Assembly (NCBI RefSeq): GCF_020905345.1
Contig: NZ_JAJJMO010000001.1
Coordinates: 682,001-746,000 of the forward strand
DNA from: Flavobacterium pisciphilum
GTDB lineage: Bacteria > Bacteroidota > Bacteroidia > Flavobacteriales > Flavobacteriaceae
Length of the DNA stretch: 64,000 bases
Reading direction: 5' to 3'
The notes beneath the pieces are model-generated. The model did not search any database, was not told the DNA's origin, and saw nothing but the letters and a program-made list of their open reading frames with translations. Shown one piece after another: positions 34,181 to 64,000 of the stretch; position 1 is the stretch's first letter, and every line of letters begins with the position of its first letter. A program made the position numbers and the translations under genes.

Positions 34181-35551
34181 TTAATTCAGGATTTCAAATA
34201 CAATTGCTTCTACTGCTCCTGTTGCCGAATTAATAACACCAACATCTGTTTTTACTTCTGACATTCTTACCCAAACACCTCCATAAAAATCTCCAAATCC
34301 AAATGCTCCCCAGATAAGTTTATGTGGAGTCCATTCGTTTTGCTCATTTGGTGCCATAAACCCAAGAGAATCACTAAATTCCTGTGCAATAAAAAAACCA
34401 TTTTTTAAAGCTATTTCTAATACTTCTTCCCATTCGGCATCTGTCTGGAACTTGCCTATAAAAACATCTTTCCCTTGATATCCTCTAGCTGCTTTTATCA
34501 CAAATCTATCTTTATTTGCTTTTAGCAAATCACATAGATTATATTCTTTCCCCTTAAAGAACGTCTTTTTTTCTTCAACTGGAGAAGTCCAAGGGATATT
34601 CCTAAGCATTAGCGCATTATCTTCTGGTGAAAATTTTCCTAATTCTGCCAATTCTCTTAATATTGCTAGATTTCTTTTATCTCCCAGCATCCTAAGTCCT
34701 ACGTGATCTGGAAAATATATTTTATCCATAATAAATGCTCTGAAAATTGCTGGACTAATCTCAACATCCAAGGCTAAAATTATCACTCCATGAATGATTG
34801 TGTCGTCAAGACATAAGTTACCACCGATTAGTTCCAATGATTTTATATCCGCTCCATACGCACTGCCTTTTAAGCCTCTCTTCTTCAACTCTTGTCTGTA
34901 AAAATTATCGAAGAAGTATATATTTTTTTCTTTTTCAGAACTTTCAATATCTCTCATATCTATAAATAGATTAAGAGTATTATTTTCTTTACCAACTTGA
35001 TTTATAATCTGTTCTACAAGGTACTCCATATAAATCTCTAGTGTATTCCTTGTTTTGTAATTAAAAGATTTATCCTTATCCCATAGCTCTGGGTGGTTTC
35101 TTCTAATTACAGATTCCAAGCTATGTATCTGCCATCCTCCTAAAGAAGATCCCATGTTGACTTCTAAAATTTTAAAACCCTCATCTGTATAAGTCAAATC
35201 TAATCTACAACCAATTTGAACCTTTTTTTCATGACACATCATTCCAAATTCTGAGAGTATTTCATTACCATCAAAATAAAAATCAGCAATTTTTCTATTA
35301 TCATTATTAAAATATAAAGACGGTATTTTATGTAATAATTTAGGAATTCTATGGCACAGCTCTTTTAGCTCATCTGTCATTTCCTTATTAATAAGTATAG
35401 GCCATGACGCTACAGGATACTCATAGTTTTTAAACACTTCAGGAACCGTGTCGTCATTTGTGTTAATTCTTGAAGGAAATTGAATGTCATTTTTAAATTC
35501 TGAAAATTTATCTGAAAGGATAGTATATCCTTCTGTTAAGTTCTCTATCAT
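34181..35551 (-). CDS. Circularly permuted ATP-grasp-like ligase
   Basis: 456 residues, soluble, no signal peptide. Segments LDLTYTDEGFKILEVNMGSS-LGGWQ (about 115-133), FVIKAARGYQGKDVFIGKF (about 349-367) and FIAQEFSDSLGFM (about 385) look like the acidic metal-binding strand, the nucleotide-binding Lys/Gly-rich loop and the adenine-side strand of an ATP-grasp fold, in the permuted order seen in glutathionylspermidine-synthase-like enzymes. ATP-grasp ligases join a carboxylate to an amine via an acyl phosphate. As the last gene of the NRPS operon it could add an amino acid or polyamine to the peptide, or make a precursor. Fold likely; reaction inferred. Confidence 0.6.
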   Translation of the reverse strand: MIENLTEGYTILSDKFSEFKNDIQFPSRINTNDDTVPEVFKNYEYPVASWPILINKEMTDELKELCHRIPKLLHKIPSLYFNNDNRKIADFYFDGNEILSEFGMMCHEKKVQIGCRLDLTYTDEGFKILEVNMGSSLGGWQIHSLESVIRRNHPELWDKDKSFNYKTRNTLEIYMEYLVEQIINQVGKENNTLNLFIDMRDIESSEKEKNIYFFDNFYRQELKKRGLKGSAYGADIKSLELIGGNLCLDDTIIHGVIILALDVEISPAIFRAFIMDKIYFPDHVGLRMLGDKRNLAILRELAELGKFSPEDNALMLRNIPWTSPVEEKKTFFKGKEYNLCDLLKANKDRFVIKAARGYQGKDVFIGKFQTDAEWEEVLEIALKNGFFIAQEFSDSLGFMAPNEQNEWTPHKLIWGAFGFGDFYGGVWVRMSEVKTDVGVINSATGAVEAIVFEILN

Positions 35552-35639
35552 GATTAAGTGTTTTTTGTGGTTTGTTGTTTTTTTGATTATTCTTTGCTAT
35601 CAAGATGAAATAAGTAATTTACTACTGCAATTATGTTTT

Positions 35640-37580
35640 TTATATAATTCCCCAATAAAATAAATAGGTGGCTAGTAGTATATTTGAAAAGATTACCGAG
35701 AAAACTATCCCTCTTTGATTTGTTTTTTTGATGGTAAAAAGAAAATATAAGAATGTTAACATCAGGCAACCTAGAAATCCAAAAAGTAATGAGAACACAT
35801 AGTCGAAATTTTCTGGTAAGCCAAAAGCCAAAATAAAGAAGTTCTGTTTTGAGACATTTAATATTGCCATAATTAGACTAACAAAAAGTCCTAATCCTAC
35901 GACAGAAGTAATAATTAAACATAACCTGATTATTTTATCCTGAATTATCGCATATCTTCTTTTCATTAATTTTATGAAATATATAAAAATGAAAATCAGC
36001 ATGATTCCTAAAGCAATTACAAGAGGAAATAAAAAGACTGGGTTAAATTCTCCTATACTATTTCCTGCTTTAGCAATGCCTTTGTTAATGATAACTCCCG
36101 TAACAAAAAGTATTGGTTTAGCTTTCTGAAAAGCATTAAGATCTAATTTTTCTTCTGGATGATCAATGAATTTTTCTGCTACTTCACGCCCTATTGTTGT
36201 AAAGCTAGGTACATGTCCATAGGTTTTTGCTTCAACAGTATGGACATTCTTAAATTTCGCTGCTACTTTTTGACCATTTGTTTGAGGCGTAATGGGATCA
36301 AATTCTCCTGAGAAAATTAGAACCGGGTATTTAGCCAAAGCAAGATTTGAAAGATCATAATGCGCCTTTAATGCTTCATTTCTATTTTTATTCCAAGCAT
36401 CACAAACTTTAAAATCTGACTTATAAAATGAAATTCCTCCATTTAAGCCTTTAAATTTTGATGCATTTTTTTGATATTCTGAAAAACTGTTGTTTGGAAG
36501 TGCTTCATTACAACTTACGCAATAGTAAAACCCATAATCCAACTCTAATAAACTTGAAAAAGCACTTACCAAATTTCCTAATGATTCTCCTTTTCTTTCA
36601 TGAAACTGATAAATCAATAATGGAATAATTTCTACTAATTGCTTGTTGTATAAGGCTTGTTGAATCGCTACTTTAAAATCTTCTGAATTGTAGGTAAATG
36701 TCCCAGATGGTATTATAGATTTATCTACAAATACGGTCAGGGGGTTTTTCTCTAAATCAGCAATAACTTCATAATAGGTTTTTTCTAAATCAGGATATTC
36801 TTTATTGTATTTCTCTTCTTTTTTACAGATTTCAAAAACTTTATTTAAACTGTTGATATAATTAGCTGTATTATCTACATAATAGGACGATATATCATCT
36901 ATGGCAGAATCTAATACTAATGATTTTATATCTTCAGGATAATTGCTTGCATATACCTGTGCTACATAAGTTCCGTAAGAAACGCCATAAATGCTCCAGT
37001 TTTTATAGTTTAATTTAGATTTTAGGGCATGCAAATCATTTGCAACAGAAAGACTGTTGTATGCATTAATGTTAATGCCTCTGTTTATAAGTTCTTGTCT
37101 GTATAACATTACGGCATCTACTTTTTGCTTTTCATCTTCTTCTACGGATTGATTTTTAGCCAAAATATCTAAAAACTTTTCTCCTAAATCATCCGATAAT
37201 CTGGGTTTGCATAATCCTGTACCGCGTGCATCAAACAAAATTATATCGTTGTTTTTTCGTAGAGGATGATTAATCCATGACCAAATATTAACAATCCCTC
37301 CTGCTCCGGGTCCTCCTTGTATAAAAACAACTGCATTGGATGTTTTTAAGTTAGATGTGTTTTTTAAAATAGCTACTGCAACTTTTATCATTTTTCCATC
37401 TTTTGCCCCCCAAGTTTCTGGAACATTTAGATATCCCCAGGTAATCTCTTTTGGGCTAGAATCTTTAAACTGAGGCAAAAAAGGATCTGCTTTTTCAAAA
37501 GTTATATTTTGAGCCACTATATTGGTTAGAAAGCCTATCCATAAAATAATAATAATACTAAATGTTGTTTTTAATTTCAT
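35640..37580 (-). CDS. S33-type alpha/beta hydrolase with C-terminal membrane anchor
   Basis: 646 residues. Signal peptide at about 1-24 (TNIVAQ); an alpha/beta-hydrolase core like tripeptidyl aminopeptidase/proline iminopeptidase: oxyanion loop FIQGGPGAGG near 85, LFDARGTGLC near 112, nucleophile elbow GVSYGTY with Ser near 200, Asp in FSGEFDPITP near 426, His in TYGHVPSF near 452. A TAP-like C-terminal lobe is followed by four hydrophobic segments at about 505-646 that would tether it in the inner membrane, active site in the periplasm. In an NRPS operon such an enzyme could remove a leader or acyl group from exported peptide, give self-protection, or degrade the product; this is inference. 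Confidence 0.8.
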   Translation of the reverse strand: MKLKTTFSIIIILWIGFLTNIVAQNITFEKADPFLPQFKDSSPKEITWGYLNVPETWGAKDGKMIKVAVAILKNTSNLKTSNAVVFIQGGPGAGGIVNIWSWINHPLRKNNDIILFDARGTGLCKPRLSDDLGEKFLDILAKNQSVEEDEKQKVDAVMLYRQELINRGININAYNSLSVANDLHALKSKLNYKNWSIYGVSYGTYVAQVYASNYPEDIKSLVLDSAIDDISSYYVDNTANYINSLNKVFEICKKEEKYNKEYPDLEKTYYEVIADLEKNPLTVFVDKSIIPSGTFTYNSEDFKVAIQQALYNKQLVEIIPLLIYQFHERKGESLGNLVSAFSSLLELDYGFYYCVSCNEALPNNSFSEYQKNASKFKGLNGGISFYKSDFKVCDAWNKNRNEALKAHYDLSNLALAKYPVLIFSGEFDPITPQTNGQKVAAKFKNVHTVEAKTYGHVPSFTTIGREVAEKFIDHPEEKLDLNAFQKAKPILFVTGVIINKGIAKAGNSIGEFNPVFLFPLVIALGIMLIFIFIYFIKLMKRRYAIIQDKIIRLCLIITSVVGLGLFVSLIMAILNVSKQNFFILAFGLPENFDYVFSLLFGFLGCLMLTFLYFLFTIKKTNQRGIVFSVIFSNILLATYLFYWGII

Positions 37581-37611
37581 GTTCTTGTTTTTATATTTTT
37601 ATAATTTTAAT

Positions 37612-40600
37612 TTAGAAATTCAGGTCTATCTCAATTGCTTTTTCTTTTTCAAAAGGCAGTTCTATATCTATTAATTTTAACGGACTATTTAATTCTTTAA
37701 TAATTTCGATCAGTAACATCTCATATTTTAAATGAATCAATTCAATAGTTTCTCTGGTATAATTTTGAGCATTATAGCTTATATCTCCAATTAAATTTTC
37801 TTCGGCTACTACGAAATTTAGTAATAGCGGTAATCTGCTATAATACTCATCCACAGGCAATATTTGCAAATACAGTTCGTTGTTAATAGCGATATTATCA
37901 TAATCAAATGAAGGATTTTGCAATACAAGCAAAGCATCTATTTTAATTTGGTTTTCTATTGTTTCGGGTATGTCTTGAAATTCATTTATGAGCAGTAAAT
38001 CCTGATGTGTTTGAAGAATTATCTTAAGAATAGTTTGTTCTGGATTTATGCGTGATCTTAATGGTAGTGTTTTTACAAACATTCCTATTTGATTGTGTAA
38101 TTCCTGATGTACTCTTCCTGAATTGACAGTTCCGACACAAAAATCATCCTTACTATACATTTTGTAGATCAGAATATTAAATGCTGAAACCAATAACGTG
38201 TGAAGAGATATCTTGTATTTGTTCACAAAAGCATTTAACTCCGATATTTTTACTGATTCATATAGAAAACGCTTTTTTACTCCGGTAAGTTCTTCTTTTA
38301 CATGAATGTTATCAAAAGATATTTTATTTTCCCAAGTATATCCTTCCAAGTAATTACTCCAAAAATTAAGGGCTTTTACATGGGTCAGTTTCATTTGATT
38401 TTCATGCCAAACAGCATAATCTTTAAACTGAAACTTCAATTGGTCATTATTCTTTTTATACTCTCCTGTTATTACTCTGTATTTGTTGAGAAAGTCTGTT
38501 ATTAAAATTTCAAGAGACCATCCGTCCATTATGATATGGTGCGTAGAGAATACCAAATAGGAATACCCATTACTTGTATAAAATAATGCAACTCTTAAAA
38601 GTGGGTCTTTTTCTAAATCAAATACTTTGTTTACATATTTTTTAAGAGCTCCTGAGATTTCCTTTTCTTCATGAAAAAACTCATCCGAAAAGAAGCTAAT
38701 TTCGTCAGCATCCTTAATCTTTTGGCATGGAATTCCTTTTTCTTCAATAAAATTTGTTCGTAATGATTCGTATTTTTGCTGTATCTCCTTAAATATCTGA
38801 TCTAAAATCGACTTGTCTAACTGCCCATTTATTCCAAATGCAGCTGACATATTATAAGCGATCGATTTTTCTTTTTGCTGAGAAGCCAGCCAAATCTTAT
38901 ATTGAGAAGAAGTTAGTTTATAAAACTTTTTTTCTCCTACTCGTTCAATATTTATTCTCCCTGTAATCTCTTTGTCTTTAAGATAGTTTGACAGTTTATA
39001 TATTGTTGGATAATCAAAAACATTCTTTAAGGTTATCTGGTAAAGCAGTTTCTCATTAATTTTATTTATTAATTTAACTGCATTTAATGAATGCCCTCCA
39101 AGCGCAAAAAAGTTATCTGTAATATCAATTTCTTCTTTAATTTCGAGTACTTCTTTATAAAAATCATGAAGATTAATTTCTAATGCTGTTACAGGTTTTT
39201 TATAAGATTCTTTTGTTTTTGCACTTATTATTTCTCGTAATGAGAGATTCTTTCTGTCAATCTTTTTATTTGGTGTCAAAGGAAATTCATCTAATTGCAT
39301 TATTGCATATGGGACCATATATTCCGGCAACTCTTCTCTTAATCTATTACTGATAGTAAGAGGATCAAATTCTTTATTTTGTGTAATGACATAGGCTATT
39401 AACAAAGCTTCCTGTTCTTTGTTTTTCTGTGCAACAACCACTGAGGCTTTTACATCTTTTATCTGGTTCAGTTTGGTTTCGATTTCACCAAGTTCAATTC
39501 GATATCCTCTAATTTTTACCTGATTGTCATTACGTCCTAAAAACTCTATTTCTCCTTTTTCATTCCAGCGTCCCAAATCGCCCGTATTGTATATTTTTTT
39601 ATTTTGGTTAAACGGACTTTGAACGAATTTTTCATCTGTGAGTTCCTGATTTTTAAAATACCCCTGAGCTAATCCGTCTCCGCCAATATAAATTGTTCCG
39701 GCACTCCCGATTGGGAGAAGCTGCATACTTTTATCAAGGATATAAAGTTTTGTGTTATTGATTGGTTTACCAATATTAGAAGCTTCGTTTGCTTGTGTTA
39801 TTTTTTTGCAACTTGACCAGATTGTTGTTTCTGTCGGTCCATACATGTTCCATAATTCCCCATTTGTCTCTAACAATTTTTGTGATAATATTTCGCTTAG
39901 TAAATCTCCACCACATAAAATTTTCACCGACTTATTTCCTTTCCATCCAGCATTGTAAAGCATTTGATAAAAACTTGGAGTTGCCTGGATTATGGTTGGT
40001 TTCAATTCGTCTACGACTCTTACAATCGCTAAAGGATCTGATAAAAGTTCCTCACTTGCAATATAAAGTCCCGCACCAGCAATTAATGGTGTAAAAAATT
40101 CAAGTATCGAGATATCAAAAGATTGTGTTGTAACAGAAAACAGATAATCATTCTCTTCAATTTTAGGTTCCTTTTGTATACTCACCAAAAAATTGAGCAA
40201 TGATTTGTGACTAATTGCTACTCCTTTAGGATTACCTGTTGATCCTGAAGTATAAATAATATAAGCAGTGTTTTTAGAAAGTGGATTCTTCAATACCTCT
40301 TCTTTTAAATCAATTGCTTCATTTGAAACTGATTCAATATCTATAATTTCCCTGTTAATGCCTATACTTTGTTTTAGATCTTGTGTGGAAATAATTTGCT
40401 GTACTTCGCTGTGATCAATAATATATTCTAAACGGTCTTTAGGAAAGGATGGGTCTAATGGAATGTAAGCGCTCCCTGATTTTAAAACTCCCAACAAAGT
40501 AGCTACAAGATTTGCAGAACGATTCATCAAAACCGCAATCGGGGCTGGTTGCTCTTTATTCACATTTTTTTGTAAATGAAAAGCAATTGCATCCGAAAAC

Positions 40601-42057
40601 AAGTCCAGTTCCTGATAAGTAAATCCTTTTTCCTGATCTTTTAATGCAATCTTATTTGGATTTTTGCTTACTTGACCTTTAAAAGCATCTAATAATGTCG
40701 CCTCTGAATCATAATCAAATTGTGTGGTGTTGAATTTATCCAGTAACTGCTCTTTTTCAACTGCTGTAATATATTGGTAATCTGAAAGTGTTTTTTTAGG
40801 ATTACCAATAACCTCTGAAAGCAATGCTTCAAAATGTACTGCTACTCTGTTAATATCAGCTTGATTAAAATAATTAACATTATAGTCAAAATCAATTTTC
40901 ACATCTTCAAGTTGATCAAATTCACGAATATAAATAGCCAATGCAACACGCTCTGAATGATGTGATAGTGGAATTACTTTTGTTTCGGTATTAATAAAAT
41001 GATCCGCATAATTCTGCTTTTCATAAGACAATGTAATGTTAAACAATGTTTTGTTTTCTTGAAATAAACCAAGTTCTTTAATCAGTTTTCCTAGAGGGAA
41101 TCTTTGATGACGATAATCCTGACGCAATTGCTGTTTAATATTTCTAATCAGCTCTTCAAAAGTATCTTGCGGGTCAGATTGTATTCTTAATGGTGAAACT
41201 CCCATAAAAAGGCCAACTGTTTTCTTAAATACTGATTTGCCTCTGTTCAATACAGGAAGTCCAATAGTTAAATCATTATTTTGATGTTTTCTTCCAAAAT
41301 AAAGATATAAAGCTCCAAGTATTAAGTGAAATGTTGTGCACCCCAAGTCTTTACCTGTTTGCTCTAATTGATTATAAACAGAGCGCTCTACAATAATTTC
41401 TTTTCTTTGACTTTTATTTTCTTTATCGGTATGGCCTGTTTTCTCAAACAATTGTTCCTGTAACTGCTTAAATCTATTTTTCCAGTAATCCTTATCGTCT
41501 TTATAACTTTCGGATAAAAAATAAACCTCATCATCATGAACAAAATCTTTATAACTATATGGATAACAAGAAATTACTTTTCCATGATTCATAATTTCAT
41601 TATAATTTCTCACTAATCGCTGAAACATTAAAGAAGTTCCCCATCCATCTGTAATAATATGATGGTATACAGAAAATAAATAATGAAACCTTTCACTTAC
41701 TTTTATAAGGATAAATTTGTGGAGCAATTCTTTCGTATTTAATTTCATAGCTACCTCAAACCTTTGCTGCATAAATTTATTAGCTTCAAAATCTGGATTC
41801 TGTTCTGAAGAAAAATCCATATATTCTAAAAAAGAATCATGCTTTTCTAAAAGATGAATTGTTGTTTCTTCATCAGATTGAGCTATAATACTTCTATAAG
41901 AATCATGCTGATCAATTAAACAGATATAAGCTTTATTTAATATTTCATAAGAAATATCTCCATCAATCGAAATCTTTGCACCTATATTGTAAATAGGGTC
42001 TTCAGGATACATAAGTTGCTCAAAATAAACATCTTGCTGAGGAAGTGTAAGTTTCAT
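37612..42057 (-). CDS. NRPS, C-A(Gly)-T-C
   Basis: 1481 residues, no docking helix. First condensation domain (HHIITDG near 130, opening LTLPQQDVYFEQLMYPEDP); A domain (TSGSTGNPKG near 601, FDISILE near 648, CGGD, NMYGPTETTIW, RGYRIELGE near 870); carrier FFALGGHS near 986; second condensation domain (LTSSQYKIW, HHIIMDG near 1172, then NQIGMFVKTLPLR) that closes the protein with no thioesterase. Pocket residues read by eye: D-I-L-Q-L-G-M-I-W, one step from the glycine code DILQLGLIW. The end in a catalytic-looking C domain means it either passes the chain to a synthetase that starts with an A domain (such as the one at 1-2459) or releases the product by condensation with an amine or an internal nucleophile. 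Confidence 0.95.
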   Translation of the reverse strand: MKLTLPQQDVYFEQLMYPEDPIYNIGAKISIDGDISYEILNKAYICLIDQHDSYRSIIAQSDEETTIHLLEKHDSFLEYMDFSSEQNPDFEANKFMQQRFEVAMKLNTKELLHKFILIKVSERFHYLFSVYHHIITDGWGTSLMFQRLVRNYNEIMNHGKVISCYPYSYKDFVHDDEVYFLSESYKDDKDYWKNRFKQLQEQLFEKTGHTDKENKSQRKEIIVERSVYNQLEQTGKDLGCTTFHLILGALYLYFGRKHQNNDLTIGLPVLNRGKSVFKKTVGLFMGVSPLRIQSDPQDTFEELIRNIKQQLRQDYRHQRFPLGKLIKELGLFQENKTLFNITLSYEKQNYADHFINTETKVIPLSHHSERVALAIYIREFDQLEDVKIDFDYNVNYFNQADINRVAVHFEALLSEVIGNPKKTLSDYQYITAVEKEQLLDKFNTTQFDYDSEATLLDAFKGQVSKNPNKIALKDQEKGFTYQELDLFSDAIAFHLQKNVNKEQPAPIAVLMNRSANLVATLLGVLKSGSAYIPLDPSFPKDRLEYIIDHSEVQQIISTQDLKQSIGINREIIDIESVSNEAIDLKEEVLKNPLSKNTAYIIYTSGSTGNPKGVAISHKSLLNFLVSIQKEPKIEENDYLFSVTTQSFDISILEFFTPLIAGAGLYIASEELLSDPLAIVRVVDELKPTIIQATPSFYQMLYNAGWKGNKSVKILCGGDLLSEILSQKLLETNGELWNMYGPTETTIWSSCKKITQANEASNIGKPINNTKLYILDKSMQLLPIGSAGTIYIGGDGLAQGYFKNQELTDEKFVQSPFNQNKKIYNTGDLGRWNEKGEIEFLGRNDNQVKIRGYRIELGEIETKLNQIKDVKASVVVAQKNKEQEALLIAYVITQNKEFDPLTISNRLREELPEYMVPYAIMQLDEFPLTPNKKIDRKNLSLREIISAKTKESYKKPVTALEINLHDFYKEVLEIKEEIDITDNFFALGGHSLNAVKLINKINEKLLYQITLKNVFDYPTIYKLSNYLKDKEITGRINIERVGEKKFYKLTSSQYKIWLASQQKEKSIAYNMSAAFGINGQLDKSILDQIFKEIQQKYESLRTNFIEEKGIPCQKIKDADEISFFSDEFFHEEKEISGALKKYVNKVFDLEKDPLLRVALFYTSNGYSYLVFSTHHIIMDGWSLEILITDFLNKYRVITGEYKKNNDQLKFQFKDYAVWHENQMKLTHVKALNFWSNYLEGYTWENKISFDNIHVKEELTGVKKRFLYESVKISELNAFVNKYKISLHTLLVSAFNILIYKMYSKDDFCVGTVNSGRVHQELHNQIGMFVKTLPLRSRINPEQTILKIILQTHQDLLLINEFQDIPETIENQIKIDALLVLQNPSFDYDNIAINNELYLQILPVDEYYSRLPLLLNFVVAEENLIGDISYNAQNYTRETIELIHLKYEMLLIEIIKELNSPLKLIDIELPFEKEKAIEIDLNF

Positions 42058-42146
42058 TTTAATTTAAAATAGAGGTTAGAATTCCTGCAATCCTCATTGT
42101 TGTAAAGATTGTAAGTGTAGTAATCGATTTGAAATGAGCTTAAGCT

Positions 42147-43784: not shown

Positions 43785-43796
43785 GTTATTATATGT

Positions 43797-44156
43797 TTAG
43801 GTTAGTATTAGTTTAAACTCCATTCTTTCTGCATCAATCAGATTGATTTTCTCTTCAATATCAATTAGAGAGGTATTCCCTTCAAACATTTTTGTCATTT
43901 TAAATAATAACTTGACGATGTTTACTATCTGACTATGTTTTTTCTTTTTGTCAGTTTCTGTTAAAATGGTTTCATTAAGCATAAAGTTTAGGCTTCCTAA
44001 AATATATTTAAACTTCATTGACAAATGCTCTGAAATTGCCACATTGTTTATTGAAATTGGTTCAAACTCGCCTTTTACCTGTATATTGGTTTTTATGTCA
44101 AATATGTATATATGGCCGTTTGCGATATAATATACTTCTTCTGTTGTATTATCCAT
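43797..44156 (-). CDS. Hypothetical protein in the NRPS operon, 119 aa
   Basis: A small soluble protein with no signal peptide: a beta-rich first half (EVYYIANGHIYIFDIK, VKGEFEPISIN) and a helical second half (KHSQIVNIVKLLFKMTKMFE). It lies between the thioesterase and the exporter genes, 12 bp from the latter, which favours a role tied to the cluster. It is not an MbtH-like protein: the length is wrong and the conserved Trp residues are absent. Family not recognised. Confidence 0.65.
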   Translation of the reverse strand: MDNTTEEVYYIANGHIYIFDIKTNIQVKGEFEPISINNVAISEHLSMKFKYILGSLNFMLNETILTETDKKKKHSQIVNIVKLLFKMTKMFEGNTSLIDIEEKINLIDAERMEFKLILT

Positions 44157-44257: not shown

Positions 44258-44959
44258 TCAGGCATCACTTAATTTTAGGAAAGAACTTCTTAATACTTTT
44301 GAAATTTCCTCTGGATGATTGTAAATAAAAAAGTGATTTCCTTCTAAAATTTTATGCTTAAAACGAGATCCGGTAAATCTGTTCCAATTTTCAATTTCCG
44401 GACTAGTTTCCTCTTCATGCCCCATTATAGCATAAAGAGGTGTTTGTATCATGATTTCATTTTCAAATGACATATCGTTTTCAAGGCATTCAAAATCAGC
44501 TCTAATGATAGGAGAAAAATAGCTGTAGAGTTCATCATTCAAAAGAACTTCTTCAGGGACACCACCAAGTTTTCTCAGCTCTTCTTTGAATTCTGAGTCG
44601 CCTAGCAAATGCTTTGTAATTTTTCTTTTTTCTTTGGCACCTGGTCCTGCATTTCCAGTAACAATAATTTGTTCTGGAAAATGACCTTCATGCTCTAGTT
44701 TTGATACCAGGCTTAACCCTAATGTAGCTCCCATGCTATGCCCGTAAATAACAAATGGTGACTGATTTCGCAATTTTATAATCTGATTGAAATAATCTTC
44801 AACAGCTTCCTTTTTATTTCTTATCAATTTTTCTACAGATCGTTTTCCTCTTCCGGGCAATTCTAATGGTATGAATTGTATATCGGTCTTAATGTGCTTT
44901 TTGAGAAAATCAAAAGAATAAATGCTACCTCCGGCAAAATGTAATAAAAACAACTGCAT
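44258..44959 (-). CDS. Type II (editing) thioesterase
   Basis: 233 residues, typical length for external NRPS thioesterases. Opening LFLLHFAGGS and PLELPGRGKR, then the nucleophile elbow GHSMGA with Ser75, and the C-terminal catalytic His in EGNHFFIYNH near 208; the acidic residue is in GHEEETSPE. Such enzymes hydrolyse mis-primed or stalled acyl groups from carrier domains and so keep the assembly line running. It begins 12 bp after the TonB-receptor gene. No other thioesterase is visible in the cluster, so a role in product release cannot be excluded. Confidence 0.9.
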   Translation of the reverse strand: MQLFLLHFAGGSIYSFDFLKKHIKTDIQFIPLELPGRGKRSVEKLIRNKKEAVEDYFNQIIKLRNQSPFVIYGHSMGATLGLSLVSKLEHEGHFPEQIIVTGNAGPGAKEKRKITKHLLGDSEFKEELRKLGGVPEEVLLNDELYSYFSPIIRADFECLENDMSFENEIMIQTPLYAIMGHEEETSPEIENWNRFTGSRFKHKILEGNHFFIYNHPEEISKVLRSSFLKLSDA

Positions 44960-44971
44960 AAAATTTGATTT

Positions 44972-47404: not shown

Positions 47405-47444
47405 TATTTAATTTTTAAACTATTCGGATTATTATTTTATCAAA

Positions 47445-56800: not shown

Positions 56801-56824
56801 TCTAAATGATGTTTTTTATAAAAG

Positions 56825-59800
56825 CTAAAGTGATATTTTTTCATATTCCTGTGTAGAGTCAACGGTCTGATTTTCATTCAGAAGAATGTAATCAATCACT
56901 TTAGACAATCCTTCAATATCTGGTGTTGAAAAAAAGTTTTTAATTTGAATTAGCACCCCAAATTCTTCATGAATCCTATTGATAATCTGAACAATAAGTA
57001 AACTATGACCTCCTAACTCAAAAAAGTTATCTGTAACACCTGCTTTTTCAATCCTGAATATTTCCTGCCATATCTCCACAAGTTTTTCTTCTGTTTTATT
57101 TCTGGGTGATACATACTCTTTTGTTGCCGTATTATTACCTGATATATCAGGAAGAGCTTTTCTATCTATTTTGCCATTAGGTGTCAATGGTAAGGATTCC
57201 AGCTTAAGATAAAATCCAGGAATCATATATTCCGGTAATTTTTTCAGCAAATAATCTCTAATTTCTGTAGTATCTTTTTCTGTTTCAGACACATAATAAG
57301 CAACTAATACTTTTTGTCCATTAAGATCATTTACATCTACAACAACTTGTTTTAAATCTTTAGAATATTGCAATAAAACTGATTCAATTTCCCCCAGTTC
57401 TATTCTAAAACCACGTATTTTAACCTGCTGGTCTTTTCTTCCTAAATATTCTATATTTCCATCAGGAAGCCATTTTGCAATATCACCAGTGTTATACATT
57501 CTGATTCCGTCTAAATTGGGATGATGTATAAATTTCTCGTTTGTCATAACCAGATTATTTCTATAACCTGGCGATAAACCAGCACCTGATAAGTATAATT
57601 GCCCTTCAACACCAAGAGGTAAAATATCTAAATTTTCGTCGAGTATAAAAGCTTTTGTATTTGCTATTGGTTTTCCAATAGGAACTGTTTTATACTGCTT
57701 TTGAGATAATTTGTATCCAGTACTATAGGTTGTATCTTCCGTTGGACCGTAAAGGTTTCTAACTTCAATTGAAAGCTCCGTAAGCTTATGAGCAATATCA
57801 GTTGGAAAAATTTCTCCGGCTAAATTGATCACAGAAACATTTTCAAGATTGTACCCTTGCTCCAGAATATATCTGATAGAAGAAGGAACTGTATTTAATA
57901 AAATAGCCTTTTCTTCTAAATACTGTCCGATTTGTAGAGAATCCCTTAAAATCCTTATTCTTTTTCCAATGGACAAAGTATAGAACATTTCAAAAATAGA
58001 AAGATCAAAACAATGTGATGTCGAAGCAAATACAACTTCAAATAAAGTGCTGTCAAATTCTTTTTCTGCCCAATTAATTAACTCCAAGGCATTGCTATGG
58101 CTAATCATAACTCCTTTAGGCAGACCTGTAGTTCCTGAAGTATAAATTGTATAAGCCAGTTCTTCCTTATGAATGACAACAGACGGATTCTGGTTTGAAA
58201 AATCGCTTTTTACTGCTTTAAAAAGATGCAGGACTTCATCTGTAATGATTAATTTGCATTTACTGTCTCTTTCAATATATTCGATTCGGTCTTCAGGATA
58301 GTTAATATCTAAAGGGATATAGGCAGCTCCAGTTTTTAAAACTCCTAAAATGGCGATCAGTAAATTTTCATTTCTTTCAAGTTTTACTCCAATTATATCT
58401 CCAACCTCTATTTTGTATTTTTGAATCAGATAATCTGCCAGCTGATTTGCTTCAATGTTAAGCTCTTTGTAACTTACATGGTTTTCACCAGAGCTTACAG
58501 CAATAGCATCAGGGATTACAGCAGCCTGTTTTTCAAATTTTTCGAATAACGAATTCGATTTTGAAACAGGAATCTGTGTAGCATTAAACTCTTCAATTAT
58601 GCTTTTACGAACTTCTTCAGAAAGAACTTCATAGCTGTTTATTACCGAATTGGGTTTATTAGCAATTAAATGCAATACTCTTTTGAAATTGGCAACAAAT
58701 TCCTTTGTTGTAATCCCTGATTTGAATTTTCGTTTTAGTTTAAAACTTCCTCTAATTCCGCCTCCGGTTCCGCTTAACGTAAAAATAAGATGAGTGTTTA
58801 CATTTTCGAATGAATTTACATCCAAGGAATCTGTTGATTCTTCGCCGTTATTTTCCTTTGTTTGATCCTTATCTCCATACCCTAAATTTTCATAAATATG
58901 AAAATTTACATAATTGAAAATACAGTCAAAAAAAGGATTGTCTAAAGAGGAATTGTTATTCACAACTTTATTGATGTGGGACAGAGAAAGTCTGTCTTTC
59001 CCTTTCAATCCATTCAGATTTTCCTGCAATGTTGTAATAAAATCTTTCCATGTGGCTGATTTTTCTATTCTCATTCTAAGAGGAATTGTATTCAGGAAAC
59101 AGCCTAAAACTTTGTCCCCATCCTCACTCATTGGTCTGTTATTAGATACCACCCCAACCATGATGTCTTTTTCGTAACGCAACAAGCTTAAAGTATACAG
59201 GTACGATCCGAGAAAAATATTTTTTAACGTTGTATTCCACTCTTTTGCTGCTTTTTCCAATTCGCGAATTTGTTCACTCTCAAAATATTCATCGTAGGCA
59301 TCTGCTGTTTCTTCTTCTGAAAAAATGTCCATTCTCTCGCTATTTTGAAGGTAATTTTTCCAAAAATCAGAATACTCCTTATTGTCTTTATCAATTAAGG
59401 AATCGATAATGCTTAATTTATTATTCGTTTTTAATGGTGCTACAACTACTTTTTCGTTTTTGGCCAGTTTAAAATAAACCTCAAACAATTCGGTATTAAG
59501 GGAAGCCAAACTCCAACCGTCTAAAATAGCATGATGAAATTGAAATACATACACCATTTTATCCGTAGAAACCCTAAAAATAGCGGCGCGCCAAAGCGGG
59601 GCATTTACAATATCGAACCTTACTTTTCTTTCTTCTTCCAGAAATATTCTGATGTGTTTTTCCTGTTGTTGTTTTTCTAAATGTGTTATATCATAACAGT
59701 TAACATAAAAATCGACTTCATTATTTACAATCTGAACTCCATCATATTGAGTAATATCAAAAGAAGTTCTAAGAGTTTCATGCTTTTGAATCAAATGACG

Positions 59801-62800
59801 AAAAGCTTCATTAAACGTATGCAGTTCGATGACTGGAATTACACACACAAACTGGTCGTGGTATACACTTTCCTTCTGATTCTTATAATACTCGTAAACC
59901 ATTCCTTTTTGAATATCGCTCATAGGATAAGCGTCTTCGATTTGTTTCGGATGTGTGTTTTTCAATACAATTTTGCTTTTTATCTCATCCAGTTCTATTA
60001 TTTTATGTTTTCGGACATCAGAAGTATTTCCTCCTTCTTGATTTTGAATATACTCAGCGAGATTTTTCAATACCGAACATTCGTATATTTTATGCAAATC
60101 GATTTCTTTCTTAAACTGCTTTTTCAGTTGTGTCAGCATCCTAATCAGTAGGATAGAATCCCCGCCGATAAGGAAGAAGTCATCGTTTACACTAATTTCT
60201 TCAGTATGCAATAACTCACTCCATATTTGAGCCAACTTCTTCTCATGAAATGTTTTGGGAGCTTCATAATTAACTTTTTCAAGTTCAAATGACTCTAAAA
60301 GTTTCTTTCTGTCTAACTTTCCATTGCTAGTAAAGGGAAATGATTCAGATTGAATAAATACATTCGGCACCATATATCTTGGCAATCTGTTTTTCAAGAA
60401 ATCTTTTAGTATTTCAATTAAAACTATTTCATTTGATGTAAAAAAAGCGACCAATTGTAGATGATTTTGATGTCCTTTTTTCACTAAAACTACAGCTGTG
60501 TTTATTTTATCAAATTCTTGTATGACAGTTTCAATCTCTCCAAGTTCCATTCGATAACCATTAATCTTAACCTGATTATCATTTCTGCCCAAGAACTCAA
60601 TTTCTCCTTTTGCATTCCATTTACCCACATCACCCGTCTCATAAATAAGCCCATCATCATGAAATGGGTTCTTAATGAATTTTTCATTGGTTAATGCTTC
60701 ATTTTTATAATATCCTTTCGCTAATCCTACTCCACCGATATATACTGCCCCAACTGTTCCTACCGGTTTTGGGCTTAAAAACTTATCCAATATATAAAAT
60801 TGGGTGTTGTTTATTGGTTTTCCTATGTTTGAAGCGTCTTTGGGTTGTTCAATTTTTTTGATACTTGACCAGATTGTTGTTTCTGTTGGTCCATACATAT
60901 TCCAAACTTCCAAACTATGAAGAACCAATTTTTCTGCCAAGGGTTCACTTAATAAATCCCCTCCGCACAATACTTTTAATTTCTTGTCTCCTTGCCAATC
61001 TGCATTAAATAACATCTGATAAAATCCCGGTGTAGCCTGAATTATCGTAGGCTTTATTTTCTCTATTTTTTGAATAATTAAATCCGGATCGGATAAAATA
61101 TCCTGACTTGCTATATATAGAGAAGCTCCTGATATTAATGGAGTAAAAAATTCTAATATAGAAATGTCGAAAGAATATGTTGTTACTGAAAATAGCATAT
61201 CATTTGAACTAAACCCTGGCTTTTGTTGCATACTAAACAGAAAGTTAACCAACGATTGATGTCCTATCTTAACACCCTTAGGTTTCCCAGTTGATCCTGA
61301 TGTGTAAATTATGTACATCAAATCAGAAGGCTTCAAATCTATGACAGGATTGTCCGTTGATTCATATTGAAAATCATCCCAATTATCAATATTCAAGCAG
61401 TTGCCTTTATTTTTTTCAGAGAGTTTTTCACTAATTCTACGAGTAGTAATTATAATTTTTGAATCAATATCCCCTAAAATATATTTTATTCTTTCTTCCG
61501 GATATGCAGGATCAACAGGCACGTAAGCAGCTCCAGCTTTCAATATTCCTAATAAGCCAACAATCATCTCTAATGATCTTTCCAAGTAAATGCCAATCAG
61601 ATCTCCTTTTTTTATTCCTTTATTAATAAGGCAATTTGCTAATTGATTAGATCGTTCATGCAATTCCTGATAGGTCAAACAATCGTCTTCAAATAGTACA
61701 GCCACTCGATTGGGTACCTGTTGCACTTGGTTTTTAAAAAGATCTAAAACGGTATTATTCTCTGGATATGAAACCTCTGTATTATTAAACTCATAAATCA
61801 ATTTATGCTTTTCTTGATCTGATACCAAATTGATGTTTTTCAGTTTTGCATTATCAGTACTGATAATCTGTTTCAATGTATACTCGAAATGACTAGCAAT
61901 CATTTCAATATATTCCTGATTGATAATACTTTGATTGAATTTAAAATGCACACACAATACTTCATGCAGATCTGCCTGAACAGATAACGGATAATTATTA
62001 TTTTCCTGAACGCTGTAATTCTGTATTTCTAAATCGTTTGGTGATTTTTTTCCTTTGTATTTGTTTATCGGAAAATTTCTAAAAACAAACAGAGTATCAA
62101 AAAAACCATGCTGGATATTGTTATATCTTTTAATACTACTTAATGCCGTATGCTGAAACTCTCTTGCTTTTACATGCTGATCCTGTAATACCTGCAACCA
62201 TGATGATACAGAATCATTTTCATCGATTCTGGCTCTAAAAGGAATTGTATTAATATACAGTCCTATTTTTTCTTCGTACTTAGTTTCTAGCGGTCTTCCT
62301 GAAACTGTAACTCCAAATACGATATCATTGTTTGATGTATATCTTGCCAATAGCAAAGCCCAAATACCCTGCAACAAAGTACTTACCGTTATATTAACCT
62401 GTTTCGTATATGCCGTAATTTTATCTGTAAACGGCTGATCAAAATCTAAATAAACATCTTTGTAATCTCCAATCGAATGCTGATGCTCTAATTGATTATT
62501 GACAAAAGGAAATAATGATGGTTCACTAAAATTTTCTAAATAAGATGTCCAAAACAATTTTTCCTGTTCCGGATTAATGCTTTTTAAATATTTTATATAA
62601 TCCTCAAATTTGTCTTCTTCACGTACTGGCGGAACTCCATTTTTTGTATAAATACTATAAGCCTCAACAAATTCTTTCATCAATATCTGTCCTGACCATC
62701 CATCCCATAGAATATGATGTTTTGTCCAGATCATTCTGACTGCTTTATCATTAACCTGCACCAAGGTAATACGCATTAACGGAGGATTCTTAAAGTCAAA

Positions 62801-63355
62801 CTCTTTAGATTGCTCATTTTGCAACAATGCCTCAAACTGATTTTCTAATTCCTCTTTCTCAAAATGTGTATAATCAACATGCTCATAATCAAAATTTATT
62901 TTTTTATAGACACATTGTACAGGTATATTCAATTGGTCATGAATAAAAGCTGTTCTCAAAATCGTGTGGTTTTTTATCACATATCCCCATGCTTTTCTAA
63001 AAGCATTTAGATCCAGCCCATCCGGAAATTCCATATTAAACTGTGTCTTATATGTAGTACTTTTGGGATTGTACAAACTATGAAACAAAATGCCTTCCTG
63101 TAATGGGCTCAATTCGTATAAAGCAGAAATATCTTCTTTGTTAATTTTGTGATCATTGGTATCAATATCCTTTTTTAAAAAGGCTACTAATTCACTTTTA
63201 TTACTTTTAATAAAAGTCATGATTTCAGCATCTTTTTTAATTAATTCAATCTCATTCGAAGATAATTTTCCCTCCGATCCTTTTAATATTAAATCATTAC
63301 CTTGTACTTCAAGAGTCAGCCCAAGAGCTGCTATTTTATTTAAAAATGGATTCAT
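56825..63355 (-). CDS. NRPS, dock-C-A(Gly)-T-C-A(Ala)-T
   Basis: 2176 residues. A TubC-type docking domain (about 1-65, FLNKIAALGLTLEVQGNDL). Module 1: C beginning ELSPLQEGILFHSLYNP with HHILWDG near 213, the wording of D-accepting condensation domains, which fits an epimerase domain at the end of the upstream protein; A with TSGSTGKPKG near 680 and pocket D-I-L-Q-L-G-M-I-W (Gly-like); T with FFLIGGDS near 1065. Module 2: C with HHAILDG near 1273; A with TSGTTGLPKG near 1738 and pocket D-L-F-N-N-A-L-T-Y (the alanine code); T with FFELGGHS near 2114. It ends in the carrier domain plus a short tail, handing the chain to the docking domain of the next gene, 24 bp downstream. Confidence 0.95.
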   Translation of the reverse strand: MNPFLNKIAALGLTLEVQGNDLILKGSEGKLSSNEIELIKKDAEIMTFIKSNKSELVAFLKKDIDTNDHKINKEDISALYELSPLQEGILFHSLYNPKSTTYKTQFNMEFPDGLDLNAFRKAWGYVIKNHTILRTAFIHDQLNIPVQCVYKKINFDYEHVDYTHFEKEELENQFEALLQNEQSKEFDFKNPPLMRITLVQVNDKAVRMIWTKHHILWDGWSGQILMKEFVEAYSIYTKNGVPPVREEDKFEDYIKYLKSINPEQEKLFWTSYLENFSEPSLFPFVNNQLEHQHSIGDYKDVYLDFDQPFTDKITAYTKQVNITVSTLLQGIWALLLARYTSNNDIVFGVTVSGRPLETKYEEKIGLYINTIPFRARIDENDSVSSWLQVLQDQHVKAREFQHTALSSIKRYNNIQHGFFDTLFVFRNFPINKYKGKKSPNDLEIQNYSVQENNNYPLSVQADLHEVLCVHFKFNQSIINQEYIEMIASHFEYTLKQIISTDNAKLKNINLVSDQEKHKLIYEFNNTEVSYPENNTVLDLFKNQVQQVPNRVAVLFEDDCLTYQELHERSNQLANCLINKGIKKGDLIGIYLERSLEMIVGLLGILKAGAAYVPVDPAYPEERIKYILGDIDSKIIITTRRISEKLSEKNKGNCLNIDNWDDFQYESTDNPVIDLKPSDLMYIIYTSGSTGKPKGVKIGHQSLVNFLFSMQQKPGFSSNDMLFSVTTYSFDISILEFFTPLISGASLYIASQDILSDPDLIIQKIEKIKPTIIQATPGFYQMLFNADWQGDKKLKVLCGGDLLSEPLAEKLVLHSLEVWNMYGPTETTIWSSIKKIEQPKDASNIGKPINNTQFYILDKFLSPKPVGTVGAVYIGGVGLAKGYYKNEALTNEKFIKNPFHDDGLIYETGDVGKWNAKGEIEFLGRNDNQVKINGYRMELGEIETVIQEFDKINTAVVLVKKGHQNHLQLVAFFTSNEIVLIEILKDFLKNRLPRYMVPNVFIQSESFPFTSNGKLDRKKLLESFELEKVNYEAPKTFHEKKLAQIWSELLHTEEISVNDDFFLIGGDSILLIRMLTQLKKQFKKEIDLHKIYECSVLKNLAEYIQNQEGGNTSDVRKHKIIELDEIKSKIVLKNTHPKQIEDAYPMSDIQKGMVYEYYKNQKESVYHDQFVCVIPVIELHTFNEAFRHLIQKHETLRTSFDITQYDGVQIVNNEVDFYVNCYDITHLEKQQQEKHIRIFLEEERKVRFDIVNAPLWRAAIFRVSTDKMVYVFQFHHAILDGWSLASLNTELFEVYFKLAKNEKVVVAPLKTNNKLSIIDSLIDKDNKEYSDFWKNYLQNSERMDIFSEEETADAYDEYFESEQIRELEKAAKEWNTTLKNIFLGSYLYTLSLLRYEKDIMVGVVSNNRPMSEDGDKVLGCFLNTIPLRMRIEKSATWKDFITTLQENLNGLKGKDRLSLSHINKVVNNNSSLDNPFFDCIFNYVNFHIYENLGYGDKDQTKENNGEESTDSLDVNSFENVNTHLIFTLSGTGGGIRGSFKLKRKFKSGITTKEFVANFKRVLHLIANKPNSVINSYEVLSEEVRKSIIEEFNATQIPVSKSNSLFEKFEKQAAVIPDAIAVSSGENHVSYKELNIEANQLADYLIQKYKIEVGDIIGVKLERNENLLIAILGVLKTGAAYIPLDINYPEDRIEYIERDSKCKLIITDEVLHLFKAVKSDFSNQNPSVVIHKEELAYTIYTSGTTGLPKGVMISHSNALELINWAEKEFDSTLFEVVFASTSHCFDLSIFEMFYTLSIGKRIRILRDSLQIGQYLEEKAILLNTVPSSIRYILEQGYNLENVSVINLAGEIFPTDIAHKLTELSIEVRNLYGPTEDTTYSTGYKLSQKQYKTVPIGKPIANTKAFILDENLDILPLGVEGQLYLSGAGLSPGYRNNLVMTNEKFIHHPNLDGIRMYNTGDIAKWLPDGNIEYLGRKDQQVKIRGFRIELGEIESVLLQYSKDLKQVVVDVNDLNGQKVLVAYYVSETEKDTTEIRDYLLKKLPEYMIPGFYLKLESLPLTPNGKIDRKALPDISGNNTATKEYVSPRNKTEEKLVEIWQEIFRIEKAGVTDNFFELGGHSLLIVQIINRIHEEFGVLIQIKNFFSTPDIEGLSKVIDYILLNENQTVDSTQEYEKISL

Positions 63356-63401
63356 ATCTTTAATCTAATGATGGGTTATGGTTAAAAAAGTAGTCAATAG
63401 G

Positions 63402-64000
63402 TTAGAATTTTATAACACCTTCTGTTTCAAAGTCATTATTTTCAAACAGGCTGTCAAGCTCTTCTATACTAATCTTTTCCTGTAGGTTAAAATCTGAAGG
63501 TGTAAAATCAGTAACTTCTTTGTTTACAGAATGATCTATTAGCCTAGTTAAATTTTTAACGAATTGCTGTGCCAGATTTTCTATTGTTTTTTGCTCATAT
63601 TGCTTATTTGAATAATCAAATGAAAAACCTAAAGTATTATTGACTATTGCCCCTTTTACTACCAATTTGTCACGTATTGGATAATTCTTATTGATATGCG
63701 AACCTGTATTTTCATCAGCGCCTAAGAACCAGTTGCTTTTATTGATTACATTGTCCATTTGTCCTAAATAATTAAATACCAGATCCCATGATTTTCCGGC
63801 TAACAGCCCATTGATTTCACTATCAGTATTAAGGTATTTTAGAGCCCCATAACCTAAGCCTTTATCAGGAACATTTCGTATTTTTTCTTTTACAGATTTG
63901 ATCAATTCTCCTTCTGTTTCAAAATCAGTTTGTAACAGTAAAGGGTATTTGTTTGTAAACCAACCTGTTGTATTTGTTATATCGATATCTTCTGAGAACA
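63402..64000 (-). CDS. NRPS C-terminus with epimerisation domain, partial at right edge
   Basis: The frame is open through the right edge. Visible motifs of an epimerisation domain: TNTTGWFTNKYPLLL, then IKSVKEKIRNVPDKGLGYG, FNYLGQMD, and DFTPSDF close to the end. Such domains convert the carrier-bound L-residue to D before condensation. A TTG-initiated reading from 63905 would cut the domain in half and is not a real start. The protein is the upstream partner of the synthetase at 56825, 46 bp away, whose first condensation domain has D-accepting wording. The substrate of this last module lies outside the window. Confidence 0.93.
   Translation of the reverse strand, partial: FSEDIDITNTTGWFTNKYPLLLQTDFETEGELIKSVKEKIRNVPDKGLGYGALKYLNTDSEINGLLAGKSWDLVFNYLGQMDNVINKSNWFLGADENTGSHINKNYPIRDKLVVKGAIVNNTLGFSFDYSNKQYEQKTIENLAQQFVKNLTRLIDHSVNKEVTDFTPSDFNLQEKISIEELDSLFENNDFETEGVIKF

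What the first reader, a model, noticed from the sequence alone, without database searches (positions are those of the whole stretch)
34181..64000. Unrecognised NRPS cluster predicting a D-residue-containing Gly/Ala/Ser-rich peptide
Seen: one operon-like run of eleven minus-strand genes ending in a strong terminator, with domain order ...E | dock-C-A-T-C-A-T | dock-C-A-T-C-A-T-C* | hydroxylase | TonB receptor | thioesterase II | unknown | exporter | C-A-T-C | S33 hydrolase | ATP-grasp. Codes read by eye: Gly, Ala, Ser, Ala-like, Gly. Known: DLFNNALTY, DVWH(L/V)SLID and DILQLGLIW are established Ala, Ser and Gly codes. Inference: the visible core is D-X, Gly, Ala, Ser, Ala, with another Gly whose place is unclear. 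The set of CmlA-type oxygenase, outer-membrane receptor, tethered S33 hydrolase and permuted ATP-grasp enzyme in one cluster is not one I know.
Basis: partly seen in the sequence, partly recalled or inferred. Interest (0 to 1): 0.8.

Follow-up and report, generated by a model that had tools for sequence, protein, structure and literature searches.

The report
Peptide factory with conserved start module
A Flavobacterium gene cluster builds an unidentified peptide, and its end carries a starter module, exporter and membrane-bound hydrolase that recur in related clusters whose peptides differ, which suggests that a removable cap is put on the peptide inside the cell and cut off outside.

Summary
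In detail: eleven minus-strand genes, the stated domains, codes and a terminator. The window shows part of a 64-kb cluster (genome C1:716181-780604): 8 NRPS proteins, 13 A domains, 5 of them in the window. 'Gly/Ala/Ser-rich' is a truncation effect; the rest adds Lys-, Asn-, Dab- and Asp-type codes.

The new point is the cluster's end. The 1481-aa C-A(Gly)-T-C protein (37612-42057, 'NRPS8') is most likely the initiation module. Its first C domain groups with the proven starter domain RzmA-Cs; the operon's first NRPS starts with an A domain in 13 of 13 clusters; in 6 of 14 the last other synthase protein ends in a thioesterase or reductase. NRPS8 goes with the membrane-tethered S33-like hydrolase: found in 6 of 6 further S33-positive genomes tested, 0 of 15 S33-negative, while core modules differ between clusters.

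Best reading: N-acyl-Gly is a transient cap that the S33-like enzyme removes after export. This works like ClbP/N-acyl-D-Asn prodrugs but uses another enzyme family and residue. Acylation and cap removal are inferred, not shown. The ATP-grasp enzyme is an accessory of one sublineage; its role is unknown.

The parts
34134..34155 (-). Terminator-like hairpin (9 pairs, T tail) closing the operon
   Evidence: 1 found, mean 0.1 in shuffles
34181..35551 (-). 456-aa ATP-grasp-like ligase, distant relative of circularly permuted ATP-grasp proteins; accessory (layout a only; layout a was found through this gene)
   Evidence: no Pfam, NCBIfam or PDB hit of its own
35640..37580 (-). S33/TAP-like alpha/beta hydrolase: putative signal peptide, Ser201-Asp428-His456, four conserved Cys, four C-terminal TM segments; candidate cap-removing enzyme
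37612..42057 (-). NRPS8: C-A(Gly, DILQLGMIW)-T-C, proposed initiation module
40744..42054 (-). NRPS8 first C domain (starter-type, HHIITDG)
   Evidence: groups with RzmA-Cs
39262..40680 (-). NRPS8 A domain, Gly code
37639..38931 (-). NRPS8 second C domain (elongation type, HHIIMDG), proposed to pass Gly to NRPS1
42147..43784 (-). ABC exporter of the cyclic-peptide family TIGR01194
43797..44156 (-). 119-aa protein, no family; found in 3 of 10 layout-a clusters
44258..44959 (-). Type II thioesterase
44972..47404 (-). TonB-dependent receptor (OMP_b-brl_3); 26-29% identical to the receptors of eight other clusters
47445..49082 (-). CmlA-type diiron beta-hydroxylase
49091..56800 (-). NRPS7: TubC dock-C-A(Ser)-T-C-A(Ala)-T-C*
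49115..50332 (-). C* of NRPS7: terminal degenerate C domain (HHIITDF), proposed release domain
56825..63355 (-). NRPS6: C(post-E type)-A(Gly)-T-C-A(Ala)-T
63402..64000 (-). 3' part of NRPS5 (C-A(Asp)-T-C-A(Asp)-T-E); gene continues beyond the window to genome C1:753375

Best explanation
This is the 3' half of a 64-kb NRPS cluster of Flavobacterium belonging to an apparently undescribed family of Bacteroidota clusters. NRPS8, encoded near the end, acts first: its starter-type C domain acylates Gly (inferred), and its second C domain passes acyl-Gly to NRPS1, which begins with an A domain. NRPS1-7 then add, by code, Ala, Leu-like, unassigned, Lys-like, D-Asn (perhaps beta-hydroxylated), Dab-like, Asp, D-Asp, Gly, Ala, Ser, Ala, and C* probably releases the chain. 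The cyclic-peptide-type ABC transporter exports the capped peptide, and the membrane-tethered S33-like hydrolase removes the N-acyl-Gly cap (or the acyl chain alone) outside the cytoplasm. Shown here by sequence: architecture, starter-type grouping of C1, pairing of NRPS8 with S33, differing cores. Inferred: acylation, export of a capped form, the cut and its exact bond. The ATP-grasp ligase is an accessory whose substrate I cannot name.
For: Initiation: in a tree of 182 C domains from ten clusters plus 5 solved references, RzmA-Cs is sister to the 10 NRPS8-C1 domains (0.976), TycC/DhbF/Txo1 fall among elongation domains and BacC's second C domain joins the 14 post-E domains (0.98); RzmA-Cs is a proven starter domain (PMC7804268, passages). 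The C1 profile gives RzmA-Cs 118 bits (third, best is TycC with 125); the C2 profile gives it 69 of a best 238. 15 of 15 internal A-start proteins follow a protein ending in a C domain (in 3 a C fragment after a full C); the first NRPS is A-start in 13 of 13 clusters with a left end. The last other synthase protein ends in TE (5) or reductase (1) in 6 of 14 clusters. Pairing: S33 has one full-length copy in each of 10 layout-a genomes, in the cassette; of 30 S33 loci 27 have an NRPS8-type C end upstream, and the other three genomes have NRPS8-C1 within 12 kb, broken in one; in all NRPS8-C1 was found (E<=1e-60) in 6 of 6 further S33-positive and 0 of 15 S33-negative genomes, and the one genome first found by NRPS8-C1 also has S33 beside it. 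Of 120 listed NRPS8 relatives 119 have a Gly-like code and 120 the C1 motif; of 120 listed S33 relatives 120 keep the Asp and 113 show four C-terminal TM segments. Between clusters S33 is 53-81% and ABC 61-90% identical; own TonB is 26-29% identical to the rest.
Against: No product, enzyme assay or acyl donor is known; nothing shows that the cap is removed. An A-start NRPS can be a plain loading module: the other large cluster of this genome starts with A (C1:676051-684606) without NRPS8, S33 or ATP-grasp. RzmA-Cs and NRPS8-C1 are long branches, so their grouping may be partly long-branch attraction; only one starter reference is in the tree; in pairwise scores some elongation domains reach RzmA-Cs as well (maximum 267) as NRPS8-C1 does (230-286); CDA's starter domain scores only 60 bits with the C1 profile. 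In 7 of 14 clusters the last synthase ends in the degenerate C*, and in G1340 the protein before NRPS8 ends in T. The TonB receptor is not uniformly variable: other pairs reach 51-68%. The hydrophobic N-terminus of S33 passed my hydropathy threshold in only 5 of 9. S33's nearest solved relatives (Hip1/carboxylesterase A 41 bits, prolyl aminopeptidase 26 bits) are too remote to fix a substrate. The structure predictor never ran.
Confidence: 0.58

Rival explanations
1. NRPS8 starts the chain with acyl-Gly, but the cap stays: the product is an ordinary lipopeptide, and S33 is a self-protection or turnover hydrolase (or acts on another bond).
For: S33-type hydrolases are broad; the nearest solved relatives are an envelope protease/carboxylesterase and prolyl aminopeptidases. 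Starter C domains commonly give lipopeptides that keep the acyl chain (abstract of PMC7804268; general knowledge).
Against: An enzyme acting on the core should vary with it; S33 is 53-81% identical across clusters whose cores share few codes and tracks NRPS8, the constant part.
Confidence: 0.22
2. NRPS8 is the last module: it adds a C-terminal Gly and its second C domain releases or cyclises the peptide; S33 and ATP-grasp process that C-terminus.
For: Gene order; NRPS8 starts with C and lies after the last NRPS; in G1340 the preceding protein ends in T; an ATP-grasp ligase next to it could act on a C-terminal Gly.
Against: The last other synthase protein already ends in TE or reductase in 6 of 14 clusters; NRPS8-C1 groups with a starter domain; NRPS1 would be the only A-start protein without an upstream C end; 24 of 30 S33 loci lack the ATP-grasp gene.
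Confidence: 0.1
3. The cluster makes a pyoverdine-like siderophore: hydroxylated residues bind iron, a product-specific TonB receptor takes it back, and S33 does what PvdQ does in the periplasm. Not exclusive of the best explanation.
For: CmlA-type and TauD-type hydroxylase genes beside NRPS genes, a receptor that in this cluster differs most from the relatives, exporter family TIGR01194 (its link to PvdE is recalled).
Against: No N-hydroxylating enzyme among the genes scanned; the receptor family OMP_b-brl_3 need not be a siderophore receptor; iron regulation was not tested.
Confidence: 0.25

Closest known systems
ClbP/ZmaM/XcnG-type NRPS prodrug activation (N-acyl-D-Asn cap)
   Same: One fixed acylated residue at the start, inner-membrane hydrolase with exported catalytic domain and C-terminal TM helices, partnership with a cyclic-peptide-type transporter (fused in ZmaM-like enzymes; PMC9889268, passages).
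   Different: Here an alpha/beta hydrolase (S33/TAP-like) with 4 TM segments, not S12 with 3; Gly and no E domain; NRPS8 is a separate C-A-T-C protein; Bacteroidota.
Leader peptides of tetrahydroisoquinoline NRPS (naphthyridinomycin NapG, dnacin DinC, saframycin)
   Same: NRPS-made N-terminal leader, thought to be removed by a membrane-bound peptidase (PMC7570522, passages; saframycin details recalled).
   Different: There the cores are related scaffolds; here one start module serves differing cores.
Fusaoctaxin A two-step maturation (Fusarium)
   Different: Fungal; internal cut into a tri- and a pentapeptide.
Pyoverdine assembly and PvdQ/PvdE maturation (recalled)
   Same: Acylated precursor, exporter of the same family, periplasmic hydrolase, strain-specific peptide and receptor.
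   Different: PvdQ is an NTN hydrolase; no PvdA/PvdF-type genes seen here.
Chitinopeptins (Chitinophaga lipodepsipeptides)
   Same: Bacteroidota NRPS with C-starter domains, ABC transporter and a metallo-beta-lactamase-fold (CmlA-like) hydroxylase (PMC9248904, passages).
   Different: Their conserved peptidase is S8 and they have a thioester reductase domain; the passages shown mention no NRPS8/S33 pair.

Membership tests
NRPS assembly line | C, A, T domains with core motifs | tested here: met
Starter (lipo-initiation) C domain | Groups with proven starter domains | tested here: met
   (one starter reference, RzmA-Cs, support 0.976); caveats in the Against line
Starter (lipo-initiation) C domain | Accepts acyl-CoA or acyl-ACP | not testable with these tools
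   needs enzyme assay
ClbP-type prodrug peptidase | S12 serine hydrolase (SxxK, YxN) | tested here: not met
   Pfam Abhydrolase_1 and TAP-like, GVSYG-Asp-His triad; S12 definition from PMC9889268
ClbP-type prodrug peptidase | Exported catalytic domain followed by C-terminal TM helices | tested here: inconclusive
   four C-terminal hydrophobic segments in 9 of 9 aligned and 113 of 120 listed; N-terminal segment over threshold in 5 of 9; localisation not tested
ClbP-type prodrug system | N-acyl-D-Asn starter module | tested here: not met
   Gly code and C-A-T-C without E domain
Pyoverdine-type siderophore cluster | Ornithine N-hydroxylase and PvdQ-type acylase | tested here: not met
   none among the cluster's genes scanned
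CmlA diiron beta-hydroxylase | CmlA_N domain plus metallo-beta-lactamase fold | tested here: met
   (403 bits to CmlA 4jo0)
Circularly permuted ATP-grasp | Sequence similarity to CP_ATPgrasp_2 | tested here: inconclusive
   no Pfam or PDB hit of its own; 27% identity over part of a protein that does match CP_ATPgrasp_2; structure prediction never ran

The most novel reading that the evidence does not exclude
Bacteroidota have their own NRPS cap-and-cut system: one conserved start cassette (acyl-Gly module NRPS8, PPTase, S33-like membrane hydrolase, exporter) serves otherwise differing assembly lines, so that one enzyme and one exporter type handle a whole family of peptides, the nonribosomal counterpart of a RiPP leader and leader peptidase, with a hydrolase family (S33/TAP-like) not used for this in any system I know.
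Probability: 0.5. Interest if true: 0.76.

Novelty: new variant of a known kind. Interest (0 to 1): 0.62.

Why it matters
If right, one sequence marker (NRPS8 near S33) finds a large set of Bacteroidota peptides (474 NRPS8-like proteins at E<=1e-60, 120 of them listed), tells where each chain begins although the gene lies last, and predicts that extracts must be searched for both capped and uncapped masses. It would add a second, unrelated enzyme family to NRPS prodrug removal and offer a generic cap-and-cut cassette for exporting peptides.

Tried and rejected
Rejected: a unique gene set (the cassette recurs). Rejected: ATP-grasp as a core part (6 of 398 genomes against 31 of 398 for S33). Rejected as universal: a fixed Gly-Ala-Leu-X leader; Ala comes second in 9 of 9 layout-a clusters with a left end, but the layout-b clusters have DASTIAAVC (aromatic-type, recalled) there, 4 of 4, and NRPS1 of G540 lacks the next two leader codes. 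Considered, no evidence found: ATP-grasp as macrocyclase or as C-terminal ligase. Led nowhere: PDB search with the ATP-grasp profile (0 hits at E<=10); literature searches for Flavobacterium NRPS with ATP-grasp (0 papers), for code strings (0), for acyl-glycine leaders (0; 4, of which only the RzmA paper bears on the subject), for aquimarin (688 papers with two of the terms, 'aquimarin' 0 times in the 15 listed). The A-domain code positions and the code-substrate links (Gly, Ala, Ser, Asp, Asn, Leu-like, Lys-like, Dab-like) are recalled, from no call. G304 was fetched but dropped from the architecture counts because its NRPS8 lies outside the stretch taken; G079 was left out of the left-end counts because its contig is cut there; G1187's S33 was missed by my filter.
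Full report
What is there. The window is C1:682001-746000 of a 5.46-Mb genome of the genus Flavobacterium (inferred from the named relative and the kinship column). The cluster continues to the right of the window. Read in the direction of transcription: PPTase (779963-780604), an epimerase-family gene, NRPS1 (2896 aa, A-T-C-A-T-C-A-T), NRPS2 (C-A-T-C), a TauD-type oxygenase, NRPS3 (C-like-A-T-E-C-C'), a class III aminotransferase, NRPS4 (A-T), NRPS5 (C-A-T-C-A-T-E), then the genes of the window, ending with ATP-grasp at 716181. Codes: NRPS1 DLYNNALTY, DAWYVGNVV, DAKHDGDIV; NRPS2 DTESIGTVC; NRPS3 DLTKIGEVG; NRPS4 DIWEINTDD; NRPS5 DLTKIGHIG twice; NRPS6 DILQLGMIW, DLFNNALTY; NRPS7 DVWHVSLID, DLYNNALTY; NRPS8 DILQLGMIW. 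By recalled code tables these are Ala, Leu-like, unassigned, Lys-like, Asn, Dab-like, Asp, Asp, Gly, Ala, Ser, Ala, and Gly.

Relatives. The ATP-grasp protein was searched in 398 Flavobacterium genomes (6 with a hit), 296 of the order (2), 395 of the phylum (25, of which all but the own genome and G540 are weak, partial matches of 22-37% identity) and 397 of the family (7, three of them weak); the own genome is counted each time. This gave ten clusters, own included, that I call layout a; they all have ATP-grasp by construction. I took the surrounding DNA and read gene content and domains. All ten end with TEII, ABC exporter, NRPS8, S33 and ATP-grasp in this order, in some with an extra gene in between (ATP-grasp single in eight, two copies in G1170, three in G1340). 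The middle modules differ from cluster to cluster, though F. shii's cluster (G198) shares more with this one than the others do. Nine have their left end in the data; all nine start with an NRPS1 whose first code is Ala, and eight of nine have Ala, DAWY(L/V)GNVV, DAKHDGDI(V/I). A two-component kinase and regulator like those beside this cluster were found in 7 of these 9 regions.

NRPS8 initiates. Four lines agree. First, C-domain typing: 182 C domains of the ten clusters with five solved references. The 14 domains that I had labelled post-E form one clade with BacC's second C domain, 18 of 19 labelled E domains form one clade (the 19th is an elongation-type domain that my motif mislabelled), and TycC, DhbF and Txo1 fall among elongation domains, so the tree recovers known types; RzmA-Cs is sister to the ten NRPS8-C1 domains (0.976). 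Profile scores agree: RzmA-Cs has 118 bits with C1 (third; the best hit is TycC, an elongation domain, with 125) but 69 against 238 with C2. Caveats: long branches, one starter reference in the tree, some elongation domains that score as well with RzmA-Cs pairwise, and a low score of CDA's starter domain (60 bits). Second, domain grammar: 15 of 15 internal proteins that begin with an A domain follow a protein that ends in a C domain (in three cases a C fragment after a full C); the first NRPS begins with an A domain, after about 250 residues that Pfam does not name in the one case tested (in G180 my model scored them as a C fragment), in 13 of 13 clusters with a left end, and NRPS8 ends in C. 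Third, release: the last other synthase protein ends in a thioesterase domain in five of 14 clusters (G079, below the Pfam cut-off but with a GFSYGG motif; G080, G122, G126, G180 with GxSxG motifs, two checked by Pfam at 83 and 55 bits) and in a thioester reductase in one (G312); seven end in the degenerate C*, and in G1340 the protein before NRPS8 ends in T. Fourth, invariance: of 120 listed NRPS8 relatives (474 in all at E<=1e-60), 118 are 1439-1532 aa (the other two are 918 and 1005 aa), the code is DILQLGMIW in 114 and Gly-like in 119, and the C1 motif HHxxTDG is intact in 120; C2 has HHxxxDG in 116, is altered in 2 and missing in 2. One counter-example to the grammar exists in this genome: the other large cluster starts with a plain A domain and has no NRPS8, S33 or ATP-grasp.

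S33 belongs to NRPS8. The hydrolase has a hydrophobic N-terminus (over my threshold in 5 of 9 relatives), the triad Ser201-Asp428-His456, four cysteines invariant in nine aligned relatives and four C-terminal hydrophobic segments in nine of nine. In 120 listed relatives Asp is kept in 120, the Gly-His pair in 117, and four segments are found in 113. It occurs once, full-length, in each of the ten layout-a genomes, in the cassette. Across 398 Flavobacterium genomes it occurs in 31 against 6 for ATP-grasp. Of 30 loci given, six are layout a; in the 24 others (layout b) a PPTase gene precedes S33 and no ATP-grasp is in the locus of up to 4.9 kb; an NRPS8-type C end lies upstream in 27 of the 30 (21 of the 24). 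The genomes of the three exceptions and three further S33-positive genomes were searched for NRPS8-C1 (E<=1e-60): 6 of 6 have it on the same contig as S33 within about 12 kb (in G262 it is broken; G137 has two pairs). Of 24 other genomes in that search, 15 are S33-negative members of the genus sample and none of them has NRPS8-C1 (I take the samples to be the same, as settings and counts agree); nine had not been tested for S33, and the one of these with NRPS8-C1, G520, proved to have S33 beside it. Contig lengths in the three protein lists also coincide: 43 contigs of 5 kb or more shared by ATP-grasp and S33, 24 by all three, from the 120 listed rows of each. Four layout-b clusters (G126, G180, G080, G122) were read whole: NRPS8 with Gly code, an A-start first NRPS.

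Mechanism. What stays most constant is the start module, the exporter and the hydrolase (S33 53-81%, ABC 61-90% identical between clusters); the core differs, and the receptor of this cluster is 26-29% identical to the others (other receptor pairs 24-68%). An enzyme that stays with the start module most simply acts on what the start module makes. I therefore propose acyl-Gly as a cap removed outside the cytoplasm. The parallel is ClbP: a fixed acylated residue, an inner-membrane hydrolase with TM helices, and partnership with a cyclic-peptide transporter in ZmaM-like forms (PMC9889268, passages); leader removal is also proposed for naphthyridinomycin/dnacin (PMC7570522, passages), and cutting during export is described for fusaoctaxin in fungi (PMC6563249, abstract). 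By membership it is not a ClbP system: alpha/beta hydrolase instead of S12, Gly instead of D-Asn. Whether the cut falls after Gly, before it, or after a longer stretch is open; because the residue after Gly differs between layouts a (Ala) and b (aromatic-type code), a cut at Gly is the simplest reading.

ATP-grasp. It has weak matches of 22-37% identity across Bacteroidota, two of which I scanned: one reaches the CP_ATPgrasp_2 cut-off, the other does not. All nine layout-a clusters with a left end also carry an A domain with code DAKHDGDI(V/I), in G540 at another place; a link between the two is a guess. Structure prediction could not be run.

Literature. The Flavobacteriaceae survey (PMC10734526, 12 of 45 places) and the Bacteroidetes survey (PMC9248904, 12 of 39 places) count NRPS clusters, and the passages shown mention no such cassette; in the listings of searches I saw no title or abstract that describes it (31 and 32 listed 25 of 1,942 and 25 of 241 papers). 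Subscription papers are not held, so absence from print is not shown.

Noticed in passing
Genome C1:762697-763914 (NRPS3 first domain, outside window) and C1:763986-764975 (TauD): NRPS3 begins with a C-like domain without HHxxxDG; it groups (support 1.0) with those of G259, G1170 and G1340, each directly after a TauD-type gene and before an Asn-code A domain: 4 of 4. Looks like an interface domain for Asn beta-hydroxylation (interface domains recalled).
   Followed up: partly
window 56825-63355 and 49091-56800, second C domains: Second C domains of NRPS6 and NRPS7 (HHAILDG) group next to post-E C domains, although no E domain precedes them; in this cluster they follow Gly and Ser. Could be dual-function or dehydrating domains.
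   Followed up: no
G312 C1:4563233-4568977: A second NRPS8 paralogue (52% identity, full length) with a broken S33 fragment beside it.
   Followed up: no
G1340 C1:391904-396102 and G1170 C16:227003-229788: Three and two tandem ATP-grasp genes in the cassette.
   Followed up: partly
Genome C1:609315-684606: A second very large NRPS cluster ends in the left part of the window (to about 2606); it has CmlA-, TauD-, TEII- and PPTase-like genes but no S33 or ATP-grasp.
   Followed up: no
window 28863-33926: ECF sigma factor, FecR-type anti-sigma and TonB receptor gene set directly downstream of the cluster; I saw none like it beside the cassette in the relatives read.
   Followed up: no
Genome C1:745402-753375 (NRPS5, mostly outside window): The two Asp modules of NRPS5 have almost identical A domains, by eye a recent module duplication.
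   Followed up: no
Genome C1:781081-784471: TPR histidine kinase and response regulator, found in 7 of 9 layout-a regions with a left end and near the cluster or S33 in some layout-b genomes; perhaps the cluster's regulators.
   Followed up: partly
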